A stretch of DNA of 39,855 nucleotides, from contig CANIJN010000016.1 of the NCBI GenBank assembly GCA_947467625.1, positions 1 to 39,855 on the forward strand. Direction: 5' to 3'. This document shows, in pieces, positions 29,392-39,855 of this stretch (position 1 is the stretch's first letter; each line of letters opens with the position of its first letter). The position numbers were made by a program, and so were the translations under genes. Below the pieces are notes generated by a model, which was not told the origin of the DNA, ran no database searches, and saw nothing but the letters and a program-made list of their open reading frames with translations. This DNA comes from Opitutia bacterium (GTDB taxonomy: Bacteria; Verrucomicrobiota; Verrucomicrobiia; Opitutales; Opitutaceae).

Positions 29392-32133
29392 ATGAAAACT
29401 ACCCCACTCGTCCCCTCGTGGTTCGTTTCTTCCCGAGCCGCTGCCGCCTTCGTGCTGGGCGCGGTTCTCTCCTCCGCCAGTGCGCAAACCGCCCCGGCCA
29501 CACCGCCCTCAACGCAATCATCCGCAACCGTTGCGACCAAGTCCGCCACCGCCGCACCCGGCGACCCCGTGCAACTGTCCGTCTTCGAGGTCTCCTCCGA
29601 TCGCGATCTCGGTTACCGCGCAATGTCGTCCATCGCGGGCTCCCGCACCGGCGAGGATCTCCGCAACGTCCCGATGCCCATCACCGTGCTCACGGAAGAG
29701 TTTCTGCGCGACATCGACGCCACCGATCTCCTCGAGGCCGCGCGTTTCTCCACCGGCGGACGCGGCATGCCCACCGACGACAACGACCAGCAGGCCTTCC
29801 AGTTTCGCGGCTTCCGCTCGCAGTATCAGACCCGCAATCTCTTCGTCTGGCAGGCCCCCGCCGACGCCTACAACATCGAGCGCATCGACATCGCCAAGGG
29901 CCCCAACGCCCTGCTCTTCGGCTCCTCCGAGCCGGGCGGCGTCGCCAACTTCAACACCAAGCGCGCGAACTTCACCAACAGCGCCGGCCTCACCTTTCGC
30001 GTCGGCTCGTGGGACCAGTATCGCGGCACGCTCGACGTGAACCGCCAGCTGACGTCCGCCGTCGCCGCCCGGTTGAATCTCGTGCGCGACTCCCGCCGCA
30101 GTTGGGAAAACTGGGTCGGCGGCACCCGCGAGGCGGCCCACCTTGCGCTCACATTTCGCCTGGGAAAAAACACCACGCTCCGCGCCGACGGTGAGACCGG
30201 CCGGAATGAGCGCGTGCAGGCGATTTCGCTGCCGAGCGACGCGTTCACCGCGTGGAATGGCACGACGCCCTTCATCGCCACGGCCACCGCAGTCCCGAGC
30301 GGCACGGCCCGGCTGAGCACCGCCACCGGCACCGACTATCTCGTGTGGGACACGCTCACGTCGCGCTATCAAAACTGGCGCGGCTTCGGCCAGACCAACG
30401 GCTCCGCGCAGAGCCCGGCCCGCCCAGTCAAGAATCCCGCCATCATCCCGCGCGGGGCACAGTTCACCGGTCCCGACAAAAATCAGGCGACGGATTTCCA
30501 CACGTTCGGCGGCTCCCTCGAGCATCGCGTCGGCCAGGCCCTCTCGTTGCTCGCGTCGTTCAACGCGCAGAACATCACGGAAAATCTCCGCCGCCCCAAC
30601 AACCCCGCCGTGCGCCGTGATCCCAATCCCACGCGCCCCGACGGCACGCCCAATCCGTTTTTCGGCGGCCACTACATAGAGGTCACCTGGAGCGACACGC
30701 GCAGCCACGACCTCATCTACGATTTCCGGCTCGATGCCATCTACGATTGGAAGCCCGCCCGCTGGATGAGCCAGCGGCTCTTTTTCACCGCTGGTAGCAC
30801 CGTCGGCCGCAATAACTCCGCCGCTTTCAATCTTGTCCGTATCGACAACCCCGCTGCGCCCAACTTCAACGCCGCGGCCAACACCGTCCGGCGCCGCGTG
30901 TATTTCGCCGCCGGCGATACCGCACTCAACAGCGGACTCGGCGTGCCCGCGCGCGACGCCACCTCGGGCATCGCCACCGCGTTCATGCCCACCGGCGGGA
31001 AAACCCGGCTGTGGAGCGACTCCAGCTACGAGGGCATCGGCGCCGCCGGCACCTACTGGGGCGGCTTCCTCCGCACCAACCTCGGGCTCCGCCACGACGA
31101 CTACGCCAACACCATCCAGTCCGGCGTGCGCGACGCCGCCTCGGGGCTCCTCAACTTCACTGATCCGCGCCGCAGCGTGAACAGTCTGAAAAAATATTCT
31201 CCCACCCTCGGCGGCACGCTCACGCCGTGGCAGCCGCTCACCGTTTTCTACAATTACGCGAAAACGTTCCGCGCCCCCGGCACCACCGGCACCAATCCGC
31301 TCGGCGAATCCACCACGCTCCGCCTCGGCGAGGGTCGCGAGGGCGGCGTGCGCGTCGAGTTGCTCGAGGGCCGCTTCTATCTCACCGCCAGCGCCTACGA
31401 CATCACCCAGACCGGTCAGAACCACAGCGTCGCCGGCGTGCTCACCGCCATGAACGGCATCTGGACCGATCCTGCGCTCAACACGCTCAATCCCTCCTTC
31501 GCCAGCCGCGCCCTGACCGGCGGCACCAACGAGAGCCAGACGCTCAACGCCACCGGCTACGAGATCGAGGTGCAGGCCAATCTCACGCCCGCCTGGACGC
31601 TCACGGCCGGCTACGGCAACAACATCAATCGCGTCGGCGAGCAGGACGTCAGCACCCTGCGCTACGTGAACGCCAACCTGCCGGAGTGGGAACGCCTCGC
31701 CGCTGCCAATGCGGCCGTCGGTGCCTCCATCGCCGCGGAAATCGCCGCCATCTACGATTTCATTCGCGACGCCGCACCCGGTCTCGTGCGCGGACGCTCG
31801 AACCGGGACACGGTCAATCTCTTCACGCGTTACGCGTTTCGCTCCGGACGTCTCCGTGGCCTCACGGTGGGCGGTGGCATGAACTACCGCAGTCCCGCCG
31901 CGCTCAACAGCCAGATGCTCAACGGCAACGTGGTCACGATCTGGGGCTCCATCATCACCGAATACGAGGCGATGGCGTCGTATGCGTTCAAGCTCGGCGA
32001 TCGCTATCGCGGGCGCGTTCAGCTCAATGTCCGCAACCTCCTCGACCGCCAGCGCTACGAGGAACTCACCCTCGCCCAAACCCGCTATCAAGCCCCGCGC
32101 TCGCTCAGCCTCACGACCTCCCTCTCGTTCTGA
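29392..32133 (+). CDS. TonB-dependent receptor
   Basis: A complete 913-residue receptor from ATG 29392 (a TTG nine bases earlier is possible). Signal peptide includes SRAAAAFVLGAVLSSASAQ. Plug features: VQLSVFEVSSDRDLGYRAMS, GSRTGEDLRNVPMPITVLTE, AFQFRGFRSQYQTRNLFVWQ, YNIERIDIAKGPNALLFGSS and EPGGVANFNTKRA. The barrel ends RSLSLTTSLSF with a terminal Phe. It differs clearly from the receptor at 19001, so the operon has two importers, perhaps for different oligosaccharide sizes or sulfation states. It is the last gene of the operon, 82 bases after the second beta-helix gene, and no intact glycan gene lies beyond it. Confidence 0.94.
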   Translation: MKTTPLVPSWFVSSRAAAAFVLGAVLSSASAQTAPATPPSTQSSATVATKSATAAPGDPVQLSVFEVSSDRDLGYRAMSSIAGSRTGEDLRNVPMPITVLTEEFLRDIDATDLLEAARFSTGGRGMPTDDNDQQAFQFRGFRSQYQTRNLFVWQAPADAYNIERIDIAKGPNALLFGSSEPGGVANFNTKRANFTNSAGLTFRVGSWDQYRGTLDVNRQLTSAVAARLNLVRDSRRSWENWVGGTREAAHLALTFRLGKNTTLRADGETGRNERVQAISLPSDAFTAWNGTTPFIATATAVPSGTARLSTATGTDYLVWDTLTSRYQNWRGFGQTNGSAQSPARPVKNPAIIPRGAQFTGPDKNQATDFHTFGGSLEHRVGQALSLLASFNAQNITENLRRPNNPAVRRDPNPTRPDGTPNPFFGGHYIEVTWSDTRSHDLIYDFRLDAIYDWKPARWMSQRLFFTAGSTVGRNNSAAFNLVRIDNPAAPNFNAAANTVRRRVYFAAGDTALNSGLGVPARDATSGIATAFMPTGGKTRLWSDSSYEGIGAAGTYWGGFLRTNLGLRHDDYANTIQSGVRDAASGLLNFTDPRRSVNSLKKYSPTLGGTLTPWQPLTVFYNYAKTFRAPGTTGTNPLGESTTLRLGEGREGGVRVELLEGRFYLTASAYDITQTGQNHSVAGVLTAMNGIWTDPALNTLNPSFASRALTGGTNESQTLNATGYEIEVQANLTPAWTLTAGYGNNINRVGEQDVSTLRYVNANLPEWERLAAANAAVGASIAAEIAAIYDFIRDAAPGLVRGRSNRDTVNLFTRYAFRSGRLRGLTVGGGMNYRSPAALNSQMLNGNVVTIWGSIITEYEAMASYAFKLGDRYRGRVQLNVRNLLDRQRYEELTLAQTRYQAPRSLSLTTSLSF

Positions 32134-33076: not shown

Positions 33077-33160
33077 ATGATCGCCAGACGCCTGTCCTCA
33101 CTCGCCCTGACGTTGCTTGGCTTTTCCGCCGAAGTGCTCCCGGCCGCGCCTCCGCGCCGG
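33077..33160 (+). pseudogene. 5' stub of an exported protein, cut at the restriction island
   Basis: ATG at 33077 opens MIARRLSSLALTLLGFSAEV followed by LPAAPPRR, a credible signal peptide with cleavage region. Within about 10 codons the sequence becomes the reverse complement of the hsdR 3' end (hsdR stop at 33161-33163), so the mature protein is missing. By analogy with genes here it was perhaps another sulfatase (an ...AAPP-x-x-PNI start), but no mature residue remains to prove it. The stub marks the left edge of the restriction-modification island. Confidence 0.6.
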
Positions 33161-36100
33161 TCAGCCCGCTTCGTCGGCGTAAACTCCTGCATCACGCTCA
33201 GGGTAGCTCTCGTAAAGGTGCTCGAAAACCGCCGAACATTTTTGCTGGTAGAGCGGTTTTTCGTAGGCCCGGGGCAGACCGGTATCGAGCACGTCCTCGA
33301 TGGTCATTTTCAACTGTGAGCGGGCCGAAGACTTCTGCCGCCAGTTTAGCACGAGCAATTGCTTGAGCCGTGCCAGCAAGTCCCGCGCGACTTTTTTCAC
33401 TTCGGTGCGTTCGTCGGACGTCAACTCGGGGGCGGGTCGCGTCAAGATGTCGAGGATGACCAACTCTTCCTCGGTCATACTTTCGCGGACGTGGCGTTGC
33501 TGTTCGTCGGATAGATTGCGGCTCAACTTCAGCAACTCCTCGAACAGATCCTCGATATTTCGGCTGCCGGAATTGTAGGACTCGATGAGTTCCTCGAACT
33601 TATCGGCATAGTTGGCCCTAGTTTTGTTCAAGCGAATCAGCTTCTCCAGTTGGGCACGTATCGCCGCCTTTAGCTCTTCGAGGTCGGTATTCTTGGTGGT
33701 CGATGCCTTGAAGCGTTTCGCCAACGCTACGAAATCTATCTTCGAGAGATCCAGTAGGCCGCCCGCCGTCCCGGGGATGCTTGCGCCCGTGATCGATTCG
33801 TCGAGCAGCTTGCCGATCCCCTCCATCACCATCGATACATCCACCGGATTGGGATTCAATTTGGCCCGAATGGCGTCCGCGATGGCAGCGATGCAGGACA
33901 CACGCCCCATGAATTCCAAAGCCACCGGGTCGGGCTTCACGGCGCGGAAAAGTGTGATCACGAGACGTTCGTGCCCCAAGAACTGGATGCGGAGTGGGTC
34001 GGGAGAAATCAGCGCATTGATGGCGATTTCCAGGCGCTCCAGCCGTTCGAGGCCTCCCACTGGCAACTTTTCTATGGCATCCAAATCTACCTGACGCGAA
34101 AGGCAGAAAACGGTCGCGGCTTCCACCGCTTTCCTGAGTTCGAGCACCAGCGCGTCTTTGCCCTTCACCGGATTGGCGCCGCCCTTTCCCGCACCATAGA
34201 TCGCCAATGCTTTTTCCAACGACGCAAAGACGTTGGCATAGTCGACGATCACACCGCTGTGCTTGCCGGGGAACACGCGATTGGCCCGCGCGATGGTCTG
34301 CATCAGCGTGTGATTCCGCATCGGCTTATCGAGATACACCGTTGAGCAGCTCGGCGCGTCGAATCCAGTGAGCCACATCGCACAGACGAAAACCAAACGT
34401 AGCGGATCGTCGGTATCCTTGAACCTCTCGTCTAGGGCCGGGCGGGATTCGTTCATCCGCCTTCGGTGTGGTTCGATATCGAGTCCGAGCCGCTGCATCT
34501 GCTGGATCTCGTTCTGGCCGGGCGAGACAATCAGGGCCATGTCCGTCGTCTTCAGAACGCCTAAGCGTTGGTTCAGATCCCGCAAACGGGCGGCTGTGTC
34601 GCCAGGGACGGCAGGTAGAGACTTTCGCCTTTCGGGATACACGGAAAGTTCCGCGACTTCCTTTTCCACCCGCACCCGCTCCGCCGCCCAGTGCTTCCGC
34701 ACTTTGTCGTGCAGCTTGAGCGCGGTGGCCTTGTCGATGGACACCACCATCGCCTTGCCCACGAAGCCGCGCCCAAGGAAATGCCGCACGATGTCCTGCG
34801 CCACCGTCTCCAGCCGGTCGTCGCGCGTGAGGATATGGTATTGCCTGGAAAGCTCCCGTTCGAGCTTCGCTTCCTGTTCCGGGTCGAGTTCCGCCGCTTC
34901 GATGAGATTGTAGATGTCCTCGTTTAGGTCCGGGTTCACGAGTTCCAACTCCGGCGTGCGGTTCTCGTAGAAGAGCGGCACGGTCGCGCCGTCCTCGACG
35001 GATTGCTGGAAGTCGTAGATGGAAACGTAATCCCCAAAAACGTCCTTCGTCCGCTCCTCGCCCGCGATAAGCGGCGTGCCGGTGAAGGCGAGGAACAGCG
35101 CCTTGGGCAGCGCCGCGCGCATGTTTAGCGCCAGCGTGTCGTATTGGCTGCGGTGCGCCTCGTCCGTGAGCACGATCACGTCGGGCCGGTCACATAAAAC
35201 GGGCATCGGCCCGTTTCCCTCACCCCCGGCCCCTCTCCCAGAGGTAGCGGGGAGGTTCAGAGCGGTGGCTATCTGGCGTAGGAACTCTTCGGGTTGCTCC
35301 AGTATGAGTGCGTTTGGGAAGCGGAGCACCGTGAAGCCGAGGGCGCGAAGCATGGCATCCCGGACTGCATCTTTGGCCATCACCTCGGGCGATTTATGAA
35401 TCTCTCCGTCGAGTTCGATGTCGATCCGGTGTTCCGAACAGAAGAAATCGGCGATGTAGTTATTAAGCTGATGTTCACGCCGGAATTTCAGGTCTTCGAA
35501 ACGCCGATCTCGTAATAATTCCCAAGCTATGGCTTCCGCTGGAGTTTGGCTCTGCCTCAATTCCCGTGCTCGCCGCACTAGTCCCGCATAAGGCAACCCT
35601 CCGCGATAATGCTGCGCATCCCTCACCACCAGCGATTCGCTCCCTTCTCCCCTTGGGAGAAGGGCCGGGGATGAGGGTGTTTCAGCCCGAAACTTTTCGG
35701 GCTGAAACTTATGAACGAGAGTGAAGACGTAGCGGTGATTGCCCCGCAGCAATTCCCGAAGGTGTGCGCCGCTCTCGGCATGGCACTGGTCGCCCTCAGC
35801 TTCGCTCACCGCGCCCGTGGCCTTGAACGTCTTGGCAATCTGGTCGTCCAGTTCCACGCGGTCGGTCACGACCACGAACGTCCAGTTGCCCGTCACCTTG
35901 CGCAGCACCTTCTGCGCGAAGAACACCATCGAGAAACTCTTGCCGCTACCCTGCGTCTGCCAAAACACGCCGCCGCGCCCGTGCCCGGCTTTGCGCGCTT
36001 CGAGCATCGAGGCGATGGCGTTGTTCACGCCGAGGAACTGGTGATTCTGCCCGATGATTTTCACCAGCCCGGCCTTATGCTCCGAGAACAGCGTGAAATT

Positions 36101-36856
36101 CTCCACCAGGTCGAGCAGCCGCGACTTGTCGCACGTCCCGCGCAGCATCACCTCCAGCGACACGCGGCGCGGCTCGTCCTCGCGCTCGATGCGCTTCCAC
36201 TCGACCCAGCGCTCCCAATCCGCCGTGAGTGAGCCCACGCGGCTGTCCGTCCCGTTCGAGGCGATGAGCAGCGCGTTGAACCAGAACAGCGCCGGGATCT
36301 GCTGCTTGTAGTGGGTCAGGTTCTCGTCGAACGCCGCGCGCGCGGACACGCCGGGTTTCTTCAGCTCGATCACCACCAGTGGCAGGCCGTTGACGAAGCC
36401 GACCAAATCCGGCCGGCAGGTGTAGAGCGCGCCGGTGACGCTGAACTGGCTGACCAGCAGGAAATCATTGTTCGCCGGGTGCTCCCAATCCATCACGCGC
36501 AACCGTTCTATCTTCTGCCCGCCTCGCTCGCGATCCGGCACCGACACCTTGATGCCCTCTTTGAGCAGCAGATAAACCTCCCGGTTGGCCTGCTCCAACA
36601 ACATGGTCGAACGGTCGCGGGTGAGTTCATCCACCGCCGCTGCGATGGCCTCGGGTGGGAGCGTCGGGTTTAGCCGAGCCAGAGCCGCGCGCAGTCGCGC
36701 GCCCAGCACGACCTCACCCTTGGTCTCGCGCCCGAGCGTGCCATGCGGGCCGAAGGTTTCCTCCGAAGCCGACACCGTAGCCCAACCCAGCTCAGCGAAC
36801 AACCCGATGGCGGGCTGCTCGACGAGTTGGTCTTCGGTGTAGGCGTGGGCGCTCAT
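33161..36856 (-). CDS. hsdR: type I restriction enzyme R subunit with in-frame DUF559 endonuclease insertion
   Basis: From ATG 36856 (MSAHAYTEDQLVEQPAIGLF; GTG/TTG-type longer starts not needed) the protein has 1231 residues; HsdR is usually about 1000-1050. The N-terminal nuclease shows RPDLVGFVNGLPLVVIELKK with Asp150, Glu164 and Lys166. Helicase motifs follow: FWQTQGSGKSFSM (Walker A, about 300), LTDEAHRSQY (Asp565-Glu-Ala-His568), LAFTGTPLI and TIARANRVFPGKHSG. The surplus is a 162-residue block at 389-550, between KFQPEK and MPVLCDRP, with its own Vsr-like DUF559 nuclease domain; see the mobile element entry. All motifs remain in one frame, so HsdR may still work, although the insert sits in the motor between Walker A and DEAH. 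HsdR cleaves DNA after ATP-driven translocation in complex with HsdM and HsdS. Confidence 0.95.
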   Translation of the reverse strand: MSAHAYTEDQLVEQPAIGLFAELGWATVSASEETFGPHGTLGRETKGEVVLGARLRAALARLNPTLPPEAIAAAVDELTRDRSTMLLEQANREVYLLLKEGIKVSVPDRERGGQKIERLRVMDWEHPANNDFLLVSQFSVTGALYTCRPDLVGFVNGLPLVVIELKKPGVSARAAFDENLTHYKQQIPALFWFNALLIASNGTDSRVGSLTADWERWVEWKRIEREDEPRRVSLEVMLRGTCDKSRLLDLVENFTLFSEHKAGLVKIIGQNHQFLGVNNAIASMLEARKAGHGRGGVFWQTQGSGKSFSMVFFAQKVLRKVTGNWTFVVVTDRVELDDQIAKTFKATGAVSEAEGDQCHAESGAHLRELLRGNHRYVFTLVHKFQPEKFRAETPSSPALLPRGEGSESLVVRDAQHYRGGLPYAGLVRRARELRQSQTPAEAIAWELLRDRRFEDLKFRREHQLNNYIADFFCSEHRIDIELDGEIHKSPEVMAKDAVRDAMLRALGFTVLRFPNALILEQPEEFLRQIATALNLPATSGRGAGGEGNGPMPVLCDRPDVIVLTDEAHRSQYDTLALNMRAALPKALFLAFTGTPLIAGEERTKDVFGDYVSIYDFQQSVEDGATVPLFYENRTPELELVNPDLNEDIYNLIEAAELDPEQEAKLERELSRQYHILTRDDRLETVAQDIVRHFLGRGFVGKAMVVSIDKATALKLHDKVRKHWAAERVRVEKEVAELSVYPERRKSLPAVPGDTAARLRDLNQRLGVLKTTDMALIVSPGQNEIQQMQRLGLDIEPHRRRMNESRPALDERFKDTDDPLRLVFVCAMWLTGFDAPSCSTVYLDKPMRNHTLMQTIARANRVFPGKHSGVIVDYANVFASLEKALAIYGAGKGGANPVKGKDALVLELRKAVEAATVFCLSRQVDLDAIEKLPVGGLERLERLEIAINALISPDPLRIQFLGHERLVITLFRAVKPDPVALEFMGRVSCIAAIADAIRAKLNPNPVDVSMVMEGIGKLLDESITGASIPGTAGGLLDLSKIDFVALAKRFKASTTKNTDLEELKAAIRAQLEKLIRLNKTRANYADKFEELIESYNSGSRNIEDLFEELLKLSRNLSDEQQRHVRESMTEEELVILDILTRPAPELTSDERTEVKKVARDLLARLKQLLVLNWRQKSSARSQLKMTIEDVLDTGLPRAYEKPLYQQKCSAVFEHLYESYPERDAGVYADEAG
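35197..35216. repeat. junction palindrome at the MPVL side of the element
   Basis: AAACGGGC (35197-35204) and GCCCGTTT (35209-35216) are perfect arms with loop ATCG. The first arm is hsdR coding sequence (Met-Pro-Val-Leu); the second belongs to the element and abuts its CCCTCACCCC terminal repeat. Confidence 0.85.
35207..35692 (-). mobile_element. 486-bp in-frame DUF559 endonuclease element inside hsdR
   Basis: The element is exactly 162 codons by my boundary choice and carries no stop. Its core encodes a DUF559/Vsr-like PD-(D/E)xK domain: QTPAEAIAWELLRDRRFEDL, KFRREHQLNNYIADFFC, RIDIELDGEIHKSPE and LRALGFTVLRFPN, with the expected Asp (ADFFC), Glu (IELDG), His and Arg. The ends are low-complexity linkers, SSPALLPRGEGSE and GRGAGGEGNGP, coded by 24-bp inverted repeats (35217-35240 and 35654-35677, 22 of 24 paired). 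Without it the host frame reads KFQPEK-MPVLCDRP. No intein splicing motifs are present. A homing-like or hairpin-mediated insertion that persists because it stays in frame is inferred. Confidence 0.88.
35217..35677. repeat. 24-bp terminal inverted repeats of the DUF559 element
   Basis: CCCTCACCCCCGGCCCCTCT... at 35217-35240 pairs with 35654-35677 at 22 of 24 positions. The repeats enclose the DUF559 core and are themselves translated in frame as Gly/Arg/Pro/Ser-rich linkers. Confidence 0.9.
35679..35708. repeat. junction palindrome at the KFQPEK side of the element
   Basis: GTTTCAGCCCGAAA (35679-35692) and TTTCGGGCTGAAAC (35695-35708) are perfect 14-bp arms with a 2-base loop CT. The outer arm encodes host residues Lys-Phe-Gln-Pro-Glu-Lys; the inner arm is the edge of the element and abuts its terminal repeat. 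Confidence 0.9.
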
Positions 36857-36869
36857 GATCGGGCAATGA

Positions 36870-37040
36870 ACCAATCCAATGAACAAATGACGGCTGATTC
36901 GACCCTGTTCGCGTCAAAATGAAACCCCTTGTAATGCAGGGGTTCGCACCGTATCGCCTGCTTTTTACGCGCGCTGCTTTTGACAAAACTGGGCTGATTC
37001 GGAGTCATTTTGTCCAAAGGCCGACGATGATTGGATTGGT
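36870..37040. repeat. 171-bp inverted-repeat-bounded segment between fic and hsdR
   Basis: ACCAATCCAAT (36870-36880) and ATTGGATTGGT (37030-37040) are perfect 11-bp terminal inverted repeats that enclose almost the entire non-coding gap. Inside are a 10-bp direct repeat GGCTGATTCG (36892-36901 and 36992-37001, exactly 100 bases apart) and a hairpin with arms AACCCCT and AGGGGTT. It has no coding capacity of note. It looks like a small non-autonomous (MITE-like) element or a regulatory segment. Confidence 0.5.
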
Positions 37041-37042
37041 CT

Positions 37043-38239
37043 TCACGGTTTCGCCGGCGCGTCTGGTTTCTTCCGGAGCGGCAAAAACGCCAGGATGACT
37101 TCGCGCCGCGCCCTGACCCTGCGGCCATCGCGGGCAATCAAGTCCATCTCGACCAACGCGTTCAAATCGCGCTGCACGGTTTTTGATGTCTTGCCCGCGT
37201 AAGCCTTTGCCAGTCGTGGCGTCAACTCCGTGACCTTCCCCACTTCCAGCCAATCGCCGCTGTCTCCCAGGTCCAGCGCGAGATGCCGCTGCCGCGTGTC
37301 GGTCGGGCTGTTCCGGTTCTGGAATCGCTCATGCACGAAGTTCCGCCAGACCACGTCCCATTGTTGCGTCCAGATTTTCTCAAGCTGCTCCCGCAAGCCG
37401 TCCACGAAGCCCCGCACCGCGTAGCCGATGAACGGCACAATGTCCCCGCCCGATTTGCTCGCGCGGTCGAGCTGCCGGTAATACTCCGCCCGCGTCTGGT
37501 TGTAGTGGTTGCTGAAAAGATGCGCCGCCGGTGAAGGCACACCCGCCGACAGGAGAATGTGAAATTCCAGCAAACGCGCCGTGCGCCCGTTGCCGTCGCC
37601 GAACGGGTGAACCCACGCCAGATACAAATGGGCCACCACCGACCGGAGAATCGCATACACGGTGTCCCTGCCAGTGGGGGAGTTTTCCGGCGCTTGGAAA
37701 TCCGGTCCATTGAGCCACTCGCACAGCCGGTCCACCAGATACGGGCAGTCCTCCGCTGGTGCGCCGCGATACACGTTGCCGACCACCACCGAATGCGTCC
37801 GCAACTCGCCGGGCTTTACATCGTCCTTCACGGGCAACTTCTCCAGGACCTGCCGGTTGTAAGCGCGGAAAAGTTCCGCGGACAGCGCGGGCAGTGTGCC
37901 CTCCGCCAACTGCTTGCTGATGCCGTTGCACGCCGCGATGATGTTCTCCACCTCCTGCTTCAGGTATTGCTTCGACGGCGGCACGACCAGCCTGCCCTCG
38001 ACAGCCTTCAATACTTCTTCCTCCGAAAGCGTGTTCCCCTCGATGGCCGTCGTCGCCGCCGCGCCCTTGGCGAGGTAAAGCTGATGCAACGCCTGCGCCG
38101 TCGCCGGGCGCAGCGGCACACGGGAAATGTGCTCGCATTTCGACGCCGCCTCGCCCAGCGCCAGCCAAAGCTCCGCCCCCGCCCTGCCGAGGTCGCAGCG
38201 AAAGGAAATCCAGGAATGTGTCCGTTCAAATGTCCGCAT
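37043..38239 (-). CDS. fic: Fic-domain protein with N-terminal inhibitory motif and C-terminal winged helix
   Basis: A 398-residue Fic protein from ATG 38239. Residues 63-68 (T-T-A-I-E-G) fit the (S/T)xxxE(G/N) inhibitory helix, here N-terminal (class II), with Glu67 as the blocking residue. The active-site loop H-P-F-G-D-G-N-G-R-T-A-R starts at His211 and is complete, so AMP transfer to Ser/Thr/Tyr hydroxyls of a target is expected. Residues about 320-390 look like a winged-helix DNA-binding region (TPRLAKAYAGKTSKTVQRDL, NALVEMDLIARDGRRVR). Fic genes of this type often sit between hsdS and hsdR, as here, and may control or guard the restriction system; the target is unknown. Its promoter and first codons contain the TGTCCG arrays, suggesting autoregulation by the winged helix. 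Confidence 0.94.
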   Translation of the reverse strand: MRTFERTHSWISFRCDLGRAGAELWLALGEAASKCEHISRVPLRPATAQALHQLYLAKGAAATTAIEGNTLSEEEVLKAVEGRLVVPPSKQYLKQEVENIIAACNGISKQLAEGTLPALSAELFRAYNRQVLEKLPVKDDVKPGELRTHSVVVGNVYRGAPAEDCPYLVDRLCEWLNGPDFQAPENSPTGRDTVYAILRSVVAHLYLAWVHPFGDGNGRTARLLEFHILLSAGVPSPAAHLFSNHYNQTRAEYYRQLDRASKSGGDIVPFIGYAVRGFVDGLREQLEKIWTQQWDVVWRNFVHERFQNRNSPTDTRQRHLALDLGDSGDWLEVGKVTELTPRLAKAYAGKTSKTVQRDLNALVEMDLIARDGRRVRARREVILAFLPLRKKPDAPAKP

Positions 38240-38422: not shown

Positions 38423-38593
38423 TCATTCAGCAGAGGTTTGCAACTCCAACTGACCAGACAGCAGCCGCGGCAGCCGCAGGTCGCGAGTTTGGTGGAGGTT
38501 TTGGAACGCCGACACCGTGGCCCAGCCAAGCTCCGCGAACAACCCGATGGCGGGCTGCTCGACCAGCTGGTCTTCGGTGTAGTCGTGGGGCAT
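38423..38593 (-). pseudogene. chimera of hsdR 5' end and hsdS 3' end
   Basis: An open frame of 56 codons. Residues 1-29 (MPHDYTEDQLVEQPAIGLFA, ELGWATVSA) match the start of HsdR at 36856. Residues 30-56 (NLHQTRDLRLPRLLSGQLEL) match the end of HsdS at 39093 (NLRRTRDLLLPRLLSGQVNL). DNA 38508-38582 matches 36768-36842 at 69 of 75 positions. The frame passes through the fusion point. This is a deletion scar between two type I gene sets; a functional peptide is unlikely. Confidence 0.88.
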
Positions 38594-38597
38594 GGCG

Positions 38598-39089
38598 TCA
38601 GCCGTTCTGGTAAATGAGAGTCCTCTCCGCCTGTGACTTCTTCCCGGTTTGCGTCGCGATGTCCTTCGTGAGCTGGTCGATCTGCTGCTTCAGCTGCACG
38701 GTTTGATTGCCAAGCGCGAATTCAAGCAGGGACTGCCGCTGGTCGGCGCGGACCTCGAAGCCCGAATAGACGTTCTGCTCAACAAACTCCGAATCAAAGA
38801 CCACGATGTCCGGCAGCGTCGCGGTCCATGCGTTCGTAGTGAACTCAACGTGGGTTCCGGTCGGGAGCAGAAACTTCACTTCCGGGGCGTTCGTCGCGTC
38901 GATTGTCTTTCGAGCGTTCAGCCGCCCGGCATCACCGAGCTGACATGCGCGCAATACCGCAGCGAGCGTTGACTTGCCACGCCCATTGTCGGCGTAGATG
39001 GCCGTCACTTGGCCGAGGGCGACAGCCCCAGATTGAGTGGCGTCTTGCAGCAAGCCGACATTCTGGAGTTTCAGAATTTTGCTAATCAT
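38598..39089 (-). pseudogene. shortened RloC/AAA_13-type ATPase gene
   Basis: An open frame of 163 residues that begins like AAA_13/RloC-family proteins: MISKILKLQNVGLLQDATQ, Walker A IYADNGRGKSTLAAVLRACQ, ARKTIDATNAPEVKFLL, DIVVFDSEFVEQNVYSGFEV and a coiled-coil start (LKQQIDQLTKDIATQTGKKS). Family members usually have over 600 residues with signature, Walker B and an effector region at the C-terminus; none of that is here. Its stop is followed after four bases by the ATG of the hsdR-hsdS chimera, so the 3' end of the gene may be the original one with the middle lost. RloC-type proteins in type I loci are backup anticodon nucleases; that activity is not expected from this fragment. It starts three bases after the hsdS stop. 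Confidence 0.8.
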
Positions 39090-39092
39090 GGC

Positions 39093-39855
<763 letters not shown>

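What the first reader, a model, noticed from the sequence alone, without database searches (positions are those of the whole stretch)
35197..35708. In-frame DUF559 endonuclease element inside hsdR, with host-derived palindromes at both junctions
A 486-bp block (162 codons, no stop) interrupts HsdR between Walker A and DEAH and encodes a complete-looking Vsr-like DUF559 nuclease bounded by 24-bp inverted repeats. At each junction the sequence between host and terminal repeat is the exact reverse complement of the adjacent host sequence: 14-bp arms with a 2-base loop on one side, 8-bp arms with a 4-base loop on the other. This is not an intein (no splicing residues), and no target duplication in direct orientation is visible. 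It suggests a mobile nuclease that inserts by a hairpin or template-switch step and tolerates coding regions by remaining translatable. I have only general memory of stand-alone DUF559 genes next to CCCTCACCC-type repeats; I know no description of the junction palindromes.
Basis: partly seen in the sequence, partly recalled or inferred. Interest (0 to 1): 0.9.

Follow-up and report, generated by a model that had tools for sequence, protein, structure and literature searches.

The report
Nuclease element nested inside restriction genes
A small gene for a DNA-cutting enzyme, bounded by inverted repeats, sits in reading frame inside bacterial restriction-modification genes, and where it meets the host gene there is an upside-down copy of the neighbouring host DNA, a footprint of insertion for which I found no description.

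Summary
A 461-bp, TIR-bounded DUF559 (Vsr/EDxHD-fold) block lies in frame in hsdR; relatives lack it there. A genome scan listed 80 loci; 46 hold a DUF559 element, and 45 of these lie in type I restriction genes (hsdR, hsdM, hsdS) of many phyla, archaea included; in 41 the frame is open on both sides. Nuclease-less copies behave alike: in nine of twelve genomes searched, 47 of 48 copies examined fall in hsd frames; the other three also have dispersed copies. Junction palindromes recur at 48 of 158 hsd junctions, 0 of 51 dispersed copies and about 0.5% of random places. Each reads: TIR, inverted host copy, host spacer (2-36 nt), host. Just outside the copied host segment stands T in 41 of 45 (control 31 of 150). 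No direct target duplication was seen, and empty alleles at the window-type site lack such hairpins. Best reading: a mobile nuclease element of hsd genes, inserted through a cut 5' of TR and snap-back copying of each host end (inferred). Compensated arm changes in shared insertions leave later re-templating or selection open.

The parts
33161..36856 (-). hsdR, type I restriction subunit, read through the element (ATG at 36856)
   Evidence: NCBIfam TIGR00348 hsdR E 2.3e-140
35217..35677 (-). the element, TIR to TIR, 461 bp
35640..35677 (-). 5' TIR in the gene's sense, read CCCTCATCCCCGGCCCTTCTCCC..., with an internal hairpin 35642-35651/35655-35664; encodes a Pro-rich linker (PSSPALLPRGEG)
35217..35254 (-). 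3' TIR in the gene's sense, ending ...GGCCGGGGGTGAGGG; encodes a Gly-rich linker (LPATSGRGAGGEG)
35258..35626 (-). DUF559 nuclease domain, Vsr/EDxHD fold, presumed catalytic Asp and Glu conserved
35679..35692 (-). inverted copy of host sequence next to the 5' TIR (one base, 35678, between)
35695..35708 (-). host arm (codons of KFQPEK); spacer 35693-35694; outer boundary between 35708 and 35709, outward next bases TTATG
35209..35216 (-). inverted copy of host sequence directly abutting the 3' TIR
35197..35204 (-). host arm (codons of PVL); spacer 35205-35208; outer boundary between 35197 and 35196, outward next bases TATG
39093..39812 (-). hsdS-like gene of the same type I locus, near the contig end
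   Evidence: Methylase_S, 22.0 bits at a cut-off of 22: borderline

Best explanation
A mobile element of about 420-630 bp that encodes a Vsr/EDxHD-type nuclease and lives as an in-frame insert in the R, M and S genes of type I restriction-modification systems; its TIRs are REP-like hairpins that translate into Pro- and Gly-rich linkers, and TIR-only (MITE-like and solo) derivatives occupy the same genes. Steps. (1) Shown: insertion in frame at several unrelated sites of hsdR, hsdM and hsdS. (2) Shown: where a junction palindrome is detectable, it reads TIR end at GTGAGGG, an inverted copy of a host segment Z, a host spacer, then Z itself, with Z ending immediately 5' of T, mostly TR. (3) Inferred: the Vsr-like nuclease cuts host DNA 5' of T at that place; the strand between this cut and a second break is lost or displaced; the exposed 3' host end folds back on itself and is extended to the cut, making the inverted copy; that end is joined to the element end. 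Each side does this on its own, so there is no direct duplication. (4) Inferred: the in-frame, linker-coded design lets the carrier gene keep working. (5) Hypothesis for the bias to hsd genes: the nuclease acts as part of the subunit that carries it, and R, M and S are the parts of one DNA-bound complex.
For: Host genes: the 13 Pfam families found in 45 host ORFs are type I R-M domains, apart from the two DUF559-type models, two generic methyltransferase models and GIY-YIG in 2 ORFs. Mobility: the DUF559 tree needs at least 10 changes of gene and 15 of site; one supported clade (97/98) mixes hsdR sites A, B and C with hsdM, and the window's element (site B) groups with two site-A elements (95/93); empty/filled pairs. 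Confinement: 47 of 48 copies examined in nine of twelve genomes; 7 of 7 in a 4.9-Mb genome. Footprint: 48/158 v 0/51, Fisher p 2e-7; same-side palindromes of 8 or more exact bases at 8 left and 11 right ends of 44 distinct elements, direct repeats 0; T after Z 41/45 v 31/150, p 5e-18. At hsdR site A, insertions with spacers from 2 to 17 nt copy the same host codons (GVF|W, in L060 GVI|W; read by eye). hsd junctions with score under 7 still have T after GTGAGGG in 67 of 99, dispersed copies in 0 of 51. Nuclease: D60, E71 and H77 invariant in 44 aligned copies, Z 11.5 to I-Bth0305I and 9.1 to Vsr-DNA.
Against: Only about 30% of hsd junctions show the palindrome. Arms of insertions that look shared by descent show compensated changes (3 pairs in group C1; single pairs, by eye, in window/L187 and L088/L104), so at least some palindrome perfection is later than insertion. 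At the window site no allele close enough in DNA was found to read the pre-insertion sequence base by base; in group C1 the arm replaces host length rather than adding to it (by eye). Three of twelve genomes of the window's class (G114, G136, G316) and several genomes of other phyla have copies of the repeat away from the hsd elements. Three of the 46 elements (L118, L123, L129) have stops or frameshifts in the nuclease. Nuclease activity, cut site and joining are untested; that Vsr cuts 5' of T is recalled. The dispersed repeats may be a different family (G after GTGAGGG in 37 of 51), which weakens that contrast. The one-base shift that raises 41 to 44 of 45 was made after seeing the data. 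Loci are related, so counts are not independent events.
Confidence: 0.55

Rival explanations
1. The palindromes are made or kept after insertion: replication slips on an imperfect palindrome and re-templates one arm from the other (quasi-palindrome correction), or selection keeps a hairpin at the junction. Insertion itself is ordinary homing by break repair.
For: Compensated changes in insertions that look orthologous: group C1 3 pairs with double changes, 93% of cells paired; one each, by eye, in window/L187 and L088/L104; L114, L119 and L123 arms follow their own host codons.
Against: Does not predict T (then mostly A/G) just outside the host arm (41 of 45) nor arms beginning at the TIR end; group C1 also holds 3 uncompensated mismatches, and the L054/L089/L108 arms look as if decaying; dispersed repeats show none (0 of 51).
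Confidence: 0.25
2. The block is a useful nuclease module of the restriction system rather than a parasite: DUF559 rides with the R/M/S complex, and TIRs only help to shuffle it between subunits. Selection then explains why it is seen in hsd genes.
For: Presumed active-site residues conserved in 44 copies; frame mostly kept; R, M and S all used.
Against: TIR-only copies that code for no nuclease sit in the same genes; relatives do without the block. Not exclusive of the main reading.
Confidence: 0.3
3. The palindromes were in the host gene first and served as the target.
For: Some elements insert next to palindromes in general (recalled).
Against: Empty alleles: none of 27 at site B has a hairpin of score 8 or more; at site C 4 of 15 reach 8 and 1 reaches 9 somewhere in the stretch.
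Confidence: 0.04
4. Artefact: inverted chimeras from amplification or misassembly of metagenome bins.
For: Many sources are metagenome bins.
Against: A site-B palindrome lies in the record titled Haloferula luteola strain YC6886 (L114) and, with the same layout, in L119, L123, L134 and L176 from other records; frames mostly stay open; the T rule and anchoring at the TIR would not arise so.
Confidence: 0.02
5. An intein or an intron-borne homing endonuclease.
For: Nuclease related to I-Bth0305I, named 'Mobile intron protein' in the PDB.
Against: No splicing domain in the window HsdR or among the families found in 45 host ORFs; no intron in Rfam at E up to 1 in 33100-37000; the ORF is open throughout.
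Confidence: 0.01

Closest known systems
EDxHD (Vsr-like) homing endonucleases, I-Bth0305I (3r3p)
   Same: Fold and sequence of the nuclease (profile E 1.6e-4; Z 11.5); PMC9403480 (passages) places a DUF559 gene in this family
   Different: I-Bth0305I dimerises on a target of nearly 60 bp and belongs with group I intron enzymes (PMC3943268, passages); here no intron or intein was found; in frame in hsd genes, TIRs, inverted host copies
Rickettsia palindromic elements (RPE)
   Same: Palindromic elements often inserted in frame and translated (PMC10969869, passages)
   Different: RPEs (about 150 bp) lie in unrelated genes and encode a conserved peptide; these code for a nuclease and lie almost only in hsd genes
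REPtrons: RAYT genes flanked by REPs
   Same: A gene flanked by inverted REP-like hairpins, with gene-less copies; REPs inside genes are on record (PMC3733652, passages)
   Different: RAYT is an HUH tyrosine transposase and its REPs carry a GTAG tag; here a Vsr-like nuclease and a CCCTCAC end
Vsr and the DUF559 protein VsrA of Caulobacter
   Same: Fold (Z 9.1 to 1cw0); VsrA carries DUF559 and is proposed to cause breaks (PMC12907096, passages)
   Different: Repair enzymes of free-standing genes; no TIRs are reported in the passages seen
Snap-back or P-nucleotide junctions in end joining (recalled)
   Same: Inverted copy of the end's own sequence at a joint
   Different: There, as I recall, not fixed; here the outer end lies 5' of T and the joint is an element end

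Membership tests
Pfam PF04480 DUF559 | Profile match over the curated cut-off | tested here: met
   106.4 bits v 20.6
EDxHD/Vsr-like nuclease superfamily | Fold and active-site acidic residues | tested here: met
   Model pLDDT 85.8; Z 11.5 to 3r3p, 9.1 and 8.8 to Vsr, though mitoribosomal chains at 8.7 and 8.5 tie with Vsr; D60, E71, H77 invariant in 44 rows, D73 in at least 90%
Homing endonuclease gene | Cuts the empty allele and is copied into it | not testable with these tools
   Only sequence at hand; empty and filled alleles exist
Homing endonuclease gene in an intron | Self-splicing intron around the gene | tested here: not met
   No intron family in 33100-37000 at E up to 1; ORF open through the block
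Intein | Hint/splicing domain | tested here: not met
   None among families of the window HsdR or of 45 host ORFs
Insertion sequence / DNA transposon | Terminal inverted repeats | tested here: met
   38 nt, 82%
Insertion sequence / DNA transposon | Transposase gene | tested here: not met
   The only Pfam domain between the TIRs is DUF559 with its overlapping relative MTES_1575
Insertion sequence / DNA transposon | Direct target duplication (usual, not universal) | tested here: not met
   0 of 44 distinct elements (47 rows) with a direct repeat of 8 or more at the ends
REPtron (RAYT + REP) | HUH tyrosine transposase | tested here: not met
   Encoded protein is DUF559
REPtron (RAYT + REP) | Inverted REP-like hairpins flanking the gene, with gene-less copies | tested here: met
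RPE | In-frame palindromic element in unrelated genes | tested here: not met
   In frame, but 45 of 46 nuclease elements lie in hsd genes, as do 47 of 48 repeat copies examined in nine of twelve genomes

The most novel reading that the evidence does not exclude
A new class of mobile DNA, at home in type I restriction-modification genes, whose Vsr-like nuclease travels as an extra domain of the R, M or S subunit, cuts host DNA 5' of TR, and integrates by snap-back copying of each host end, leaving host-templated palindromes instead of target duplications and keeping the carrier gene in frame.
Probability: 0.4. Interest if true: 0.95.

Novelty: categorically new. Interest (0 to 1): 0.9.

Why it matters
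If true, this is a mobile element whose nuclease-bearing form was found almost only in a defence system, carried as a domain of each of the three subunits, in bacteria and archaea. Its footprint (fixed element end, host-templated inverted copy, outer cut 5' of T, no direct duplication) fits none of the transposon, intein, intron or REP families tested here, and points to a joining reaction that can be tested in vitro with a protein of about 120 residues. It would also explain Pro/Gly-rich linkers and DUF559 blocks in HsdR, HsdM and HsdS proteins. The parts (nuclease fold, REP-like hairpins, in-frame palindromic inserts) are known singly; the combination, the habitat and the footprint are what is new. 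If the palindromes prove to be secondary, the label would drop to a new variant of in-frame palindromic elements.

Tried and rejected
Old domain of HsdR: rejected, empty alleles in near families. Pre-existing palindrome as target: disfavoured. Direct target duplication: none; cross-side inverted repeats: none, in 47 rows. Of these rows three elements (L065, L109, L116) were entered twice, so 44 are distinct; right-end palindromes are 13 of 47 rows, 11 of 44 elements; L062/L136 and L114/L134 share a flank or nearly so. A staggered-cut model with later inversion would predict direct repeats in some members; none seen. RNA hairpin under selection: one-sided G-U changes absent in C1, but only four sequences, and L104 has one-sided changes against L088 (by eye). 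Phage spread: the element pattern has no match in the viral contigs; two weak DUF559 hits in phages. Plasmids: 42 records with DUF559 relatives, all under 60% identity; their flanks were not examined. My first repeat pattern was one base too short, so its result is not used. The first palindrome scans used other limits, and split by sense ORF only, mixing antisense copies; replaced. In one search the class 'hsd' came from BLAST against references that still held DUF559; with DUF559 masked 154 of 283 anchors match, against 158; the 5 of 74 'other' junctions with a palindrome include some in or beside hsd genes. Dropped before counts: repeat anchors whose first 40-45 flank bases hold another repeat copy (9 of 218; not counted); elements without a right TIR or near a locus end (47 of 53 rows used). 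The random-anchor rate is, whose code differs slightly at the edge. One search reported 82 stretches and listed 80 loci; 34 of the 80 had no DUF559 by my profile and were left out of element counts, among them L074 and L120, where the locus ends soon after the TIR. L118 (internal stop) is the one element of 46 not in an hsd gene. Left out of the 44-row alignment for stops or frameshifts: L118, L123, L129.

Papers: ten searches found no account of DUF559 elements in hsd genes or of such junctions; beyond five papers seen in passages I saw listings only, and the library holds open-licence papers only. I-Bth0305I's own paper is not held.
Full report
What was claimed and what is there. The window holds hsdR of a type I restriction system on the minus strand (36856-33161), open throughout. 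Between Walker A and DEAH it carries a block of 461 bp from TIR to TIR (35217-35677) with a DUF559 domain. The two TIRs are 38 nt and 82% complementary; at one side a 14-bp palindrome with a 2-base loop lies one base from the TIR, at the other an 8-bp one with a 4-base loop abuts it. The 14-bp palindrome is the only perfect one of its kind in the window.

Is it an insertion? HsdR relatives without the block run from HKF to PVL with about eight residues between. L187, from another family of the same class, has the same insertion at the same codon; its hsdR flanks are 86-87% and its element 77% identical to the window's, which fits one insertion shared by descent. In a second HsdR family, members with and without blocks at several sites can be compared directly.

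How widespread, and where? One scan of genome contigs (a collection of 84,980 species) for 'TIR + start of the nuclease' reported 82 stretches and listed 80 loci. A profile made from four copies found DUF559 in 46. Reading the frames, 45 of the 46 lie in hsdR, hsdM or hsdS; L118 is not in such a gene and has a stop. In 41 of 46 the frame is open at least 60 codons or to the contig end on both sides; the others are L089, L093, L118, L123 and L129. Pfam on the 45 host ORFs names type I R-M families (SWI2_SNF2 23, ResIII 22, T1R_D3-like 20, HSDR_N 19, T1RH-like_C 17, N6_Mtase 15, HsdM_N 10, Methylase_S 5), besides DUF559 models, generic methyltransferase models and GIY-YIG in two. Record titles of these loci cover Verrucomicrobia, Lentisphaerae, Planctomycetes, Nitrospirae, Acidobacteria (Holophagales), Elusimicrobia, Flavobacteriales, Lysobacterales, WOR-3, Omnitrophota, a cyanobacterium and Methanophagales/Syntrophoarchaeum archaea, among others. 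The same DNA pattern has no match in viral contigs.

Sites. By eye, in hsdR there are at least four: before Walker A, between Walker A and DEAH (the window's), and two in the N-terminal part; in hsdM at least four; in hsdS one, after FDPVRRN. They share no sequence that I can see. A tree of 44 DUF559 stretches needs at least 10 changes of host gene and 15 of site; supported branches alone force fewer. A well supported clade of 12 (97/98) mixes three hsdR sites and two hsdM sites; the window's element (between Walker A and DEAH) falls with L088 and L104 (before Walker A) (95/93). Labels are still clustered (10 changes against 16.2 shuffled), so both inheritance and movement occur.

Nuclease-less copies and confinement. 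TIR pairs without nuclease (about 60-76 bp) and single TIRs also sit in frame in the same genes. Twelve genomes, chosen because they hold the element or a TIR-only copy, were searched for the repeat. In nine of them 48 of the 50 listed copies were examined, and 47 fall in ORFs that match HsdR (25), HsdM (18) or HsdS (4) with DUF559 masked in the references; with an alignment of at least 80 residues required and references unmasked it is 46 of 48. The other three genomes (G114, G136, G316) have further copies elsewhere. Of 15 genomes of other loci, several have one to three copies only, while G454 has 77 and G455 27; gene context was not read there, and the list was cut.

The junctions. Read outward from the element, a junction with a palindrome is GTGAGGG, then an inverted copy of host segment Z, then a host spacer, then Z. 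In 158 distinct hsd junctions 48 have such a palindrome of score 8 or more (matches minus twice the mismatches, arm starting at most one base from the TIR); in 51 dispersed copies of the repeat from 40 regions of four genomes, none (p 2e-7); in 74 others, 5; at 32,071 random anchors, 150. In 44 distinct elements with both ends (47 rows), same-side palindromes of at least 8 exact bases lie at the left end in 8 and at the right end in 11, against under 1% of controls; direct repeats across the element and cross-side inverted repeats of 8 or more are absent. Empty alleles at site B have no hairpin of score 8 or more (0 of 18, 0 of 9); at site C 4 of 15 reach 8 and 1 reaches 9 somewhere in the stretch.

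The boundary rule. Of 45 distinct hsd palindromes from 31 loci, the base just beyond Z is T in 41; the other four are C, and three of those become T when one base (CTGG) is stepped over, giving 44 of 45 (a shift made after seeing the data); the next base is then A (24), G (17) or T (4), never C; the last base of Z is A in 31. Control palindromes have T in 31 of 150, p 5e-18 for 41 of 45. C is largely excluded by construction, as it would pair with the TIR's last G; one third T would then be expected. A wobble pair with that G would favour T, but not the purine next to it. Spacers run from 2 to 36 nt, 22 of 45 at most 5; arms from 8 to 22. Before Walker A, insertions with different spacers end their copy at the same host codons (GVF|W; GVI|W in L060), by eye: L048, L088, L104, L058, L132, L060. 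So the outer end looks set by a cut and the inner joint looks free.

The nuclease. In 44 aligned copies (three elements with stops or frameshifts left out) D60, E71 and H77 are invariant and D73 kept in at least 90%; I take these for the active site. The profile finds a DUF559 structure (3hrl, 9.9e-27) and the homing endonuclease I-Bth0305I (3r3p, 1.6e-4) in the PDB; the model (pLDDT 85.8) aligns with 3hrl at Z 14.4 (rmsd 1.2, 87 residues), 3r3p at 11.5 (2.7, 91) and Vsr with DNA, 1cw0, at 9.1 (2.3, 93), the last tied with chains of mitochondrial ribosomes at 8.7 and 8.5. Vsr nicks the T strand at T:G mismatches (PMC12907096, passages); that it cuts on the 5' side of that T is my recollection. 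A cut 5' of T would fit.

Mechanism. I favour: a cut 5' of TR on the strand that leads away from the element; loss of the strand back to a second break; fold-back of the exposed 3' end; copying up to the cut; joining to the element end. It explains the fixed TIR end, the fixed outer end, the free spacer, the independence of the two sides and the lack of direct duplication. Only the product is shown. The polymerase, the joining step and the second break are inferred.

What does not fit neatly. Arms of insertions that look shared change together: in group C1 three of eleven pairs changed on both sides and three show mismatches (four sequences); the window has A-T where L187 has C-G in one pair of the smaller palindrome, with three mismatches in L187 (by eye). 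In the copied arm some of these changes alter the protein (sequences). Either the copy is renewed from time to time (by the same cut-and-copy reaction or by quasi-palindrome correction), or the hairpin matters. In C1 the arm takes the place of host sequence rather than adding to it (by eye). The bias to hsd genes has no tested explanation; a nuclease that works as part of the R-M complex, or acts close to its own gene, is a guess.

Known relatives. See Closest known systems. Rickettsia palindromic elements are translated in frame but lie in unrelated genes; REPtrons have the layout but another enzyme; EDxHD homing enzymes share the nuclease but not the layout. Ten paper searches found no account of this combination (listed in Tried and rejected).

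Verdict. A real, recurrent and, as far as I could search, undescribed mobile element family. Interest 0.9; the insertion mechanism is the open and testable part.

Noticed in passing
window 38495-38590 (minus); L255 8790-9161; L256 6862-7227; L260 5957-6406: Fragments of the HsdR N-terminus lie apart from the full hsdR in the same loci; in the window one matches HsdR residues 13-44 at 81%, in L255 and L256 about 90 residues align, in L260 58. May be repeated duplication of the hsdR 5' end with gene insertion.
   Followed up: no
L136 / L201 (G114:C33): An hsdR that joins the left flank of the N-terminal site to the right flank of the Walker-DEAH site around one element: an in-frame deletion, apparently by recombination between two elements.
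   Followed up: partly
L086:648-2951 and one more host ORF: Two of the 45 host ORFs also hold a GIY-YIG nuclease domain; in the hsdM of L086 I place it by eye after the methylase part.
   Followed up: no
L206, L207, L210, L211, L213-L215, L217-L224: Of 15 short-frame DUF559 genes of the same class, 14 have CTCTCCC, GGGAGAGG or GGGTGAGGG-type motifs nearby, some in the opposite orientation to the hsd elements; no chance control was made.
   Followed up: partly
G454 (L109's genome, titled Nitrospira) and G455 (L110's genome, titled WOR-3): 77 and 27 copies of the CCCTCACCC repeat spread over many contigs; 20 regions of G454 were read, and none of their repeat copies counted as dispersed shows a junction palindrome of score 8 or more.
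   Followed up: partly
G000:C21:30783-30959: In the window's own genome a 1094-residue ORF matches the second half of DUF559.
   Followed up: no
hsd genes with inserts, e.g. L095, L100, L114, L123, L243: The host codon at the outer boundary is often ATA or GTA (TAG across the cut) where empty alleles of the hsdR sites have ATC, GTG or GTT; it may be the target, or a change made on insertion (by eye).
   Followed up: partly
window 37043-38239 and 38598-39089: A Fic-family gene and an AAA-domain ORF lie between hsdR and the hsdS-like gene.
   Followed up: no
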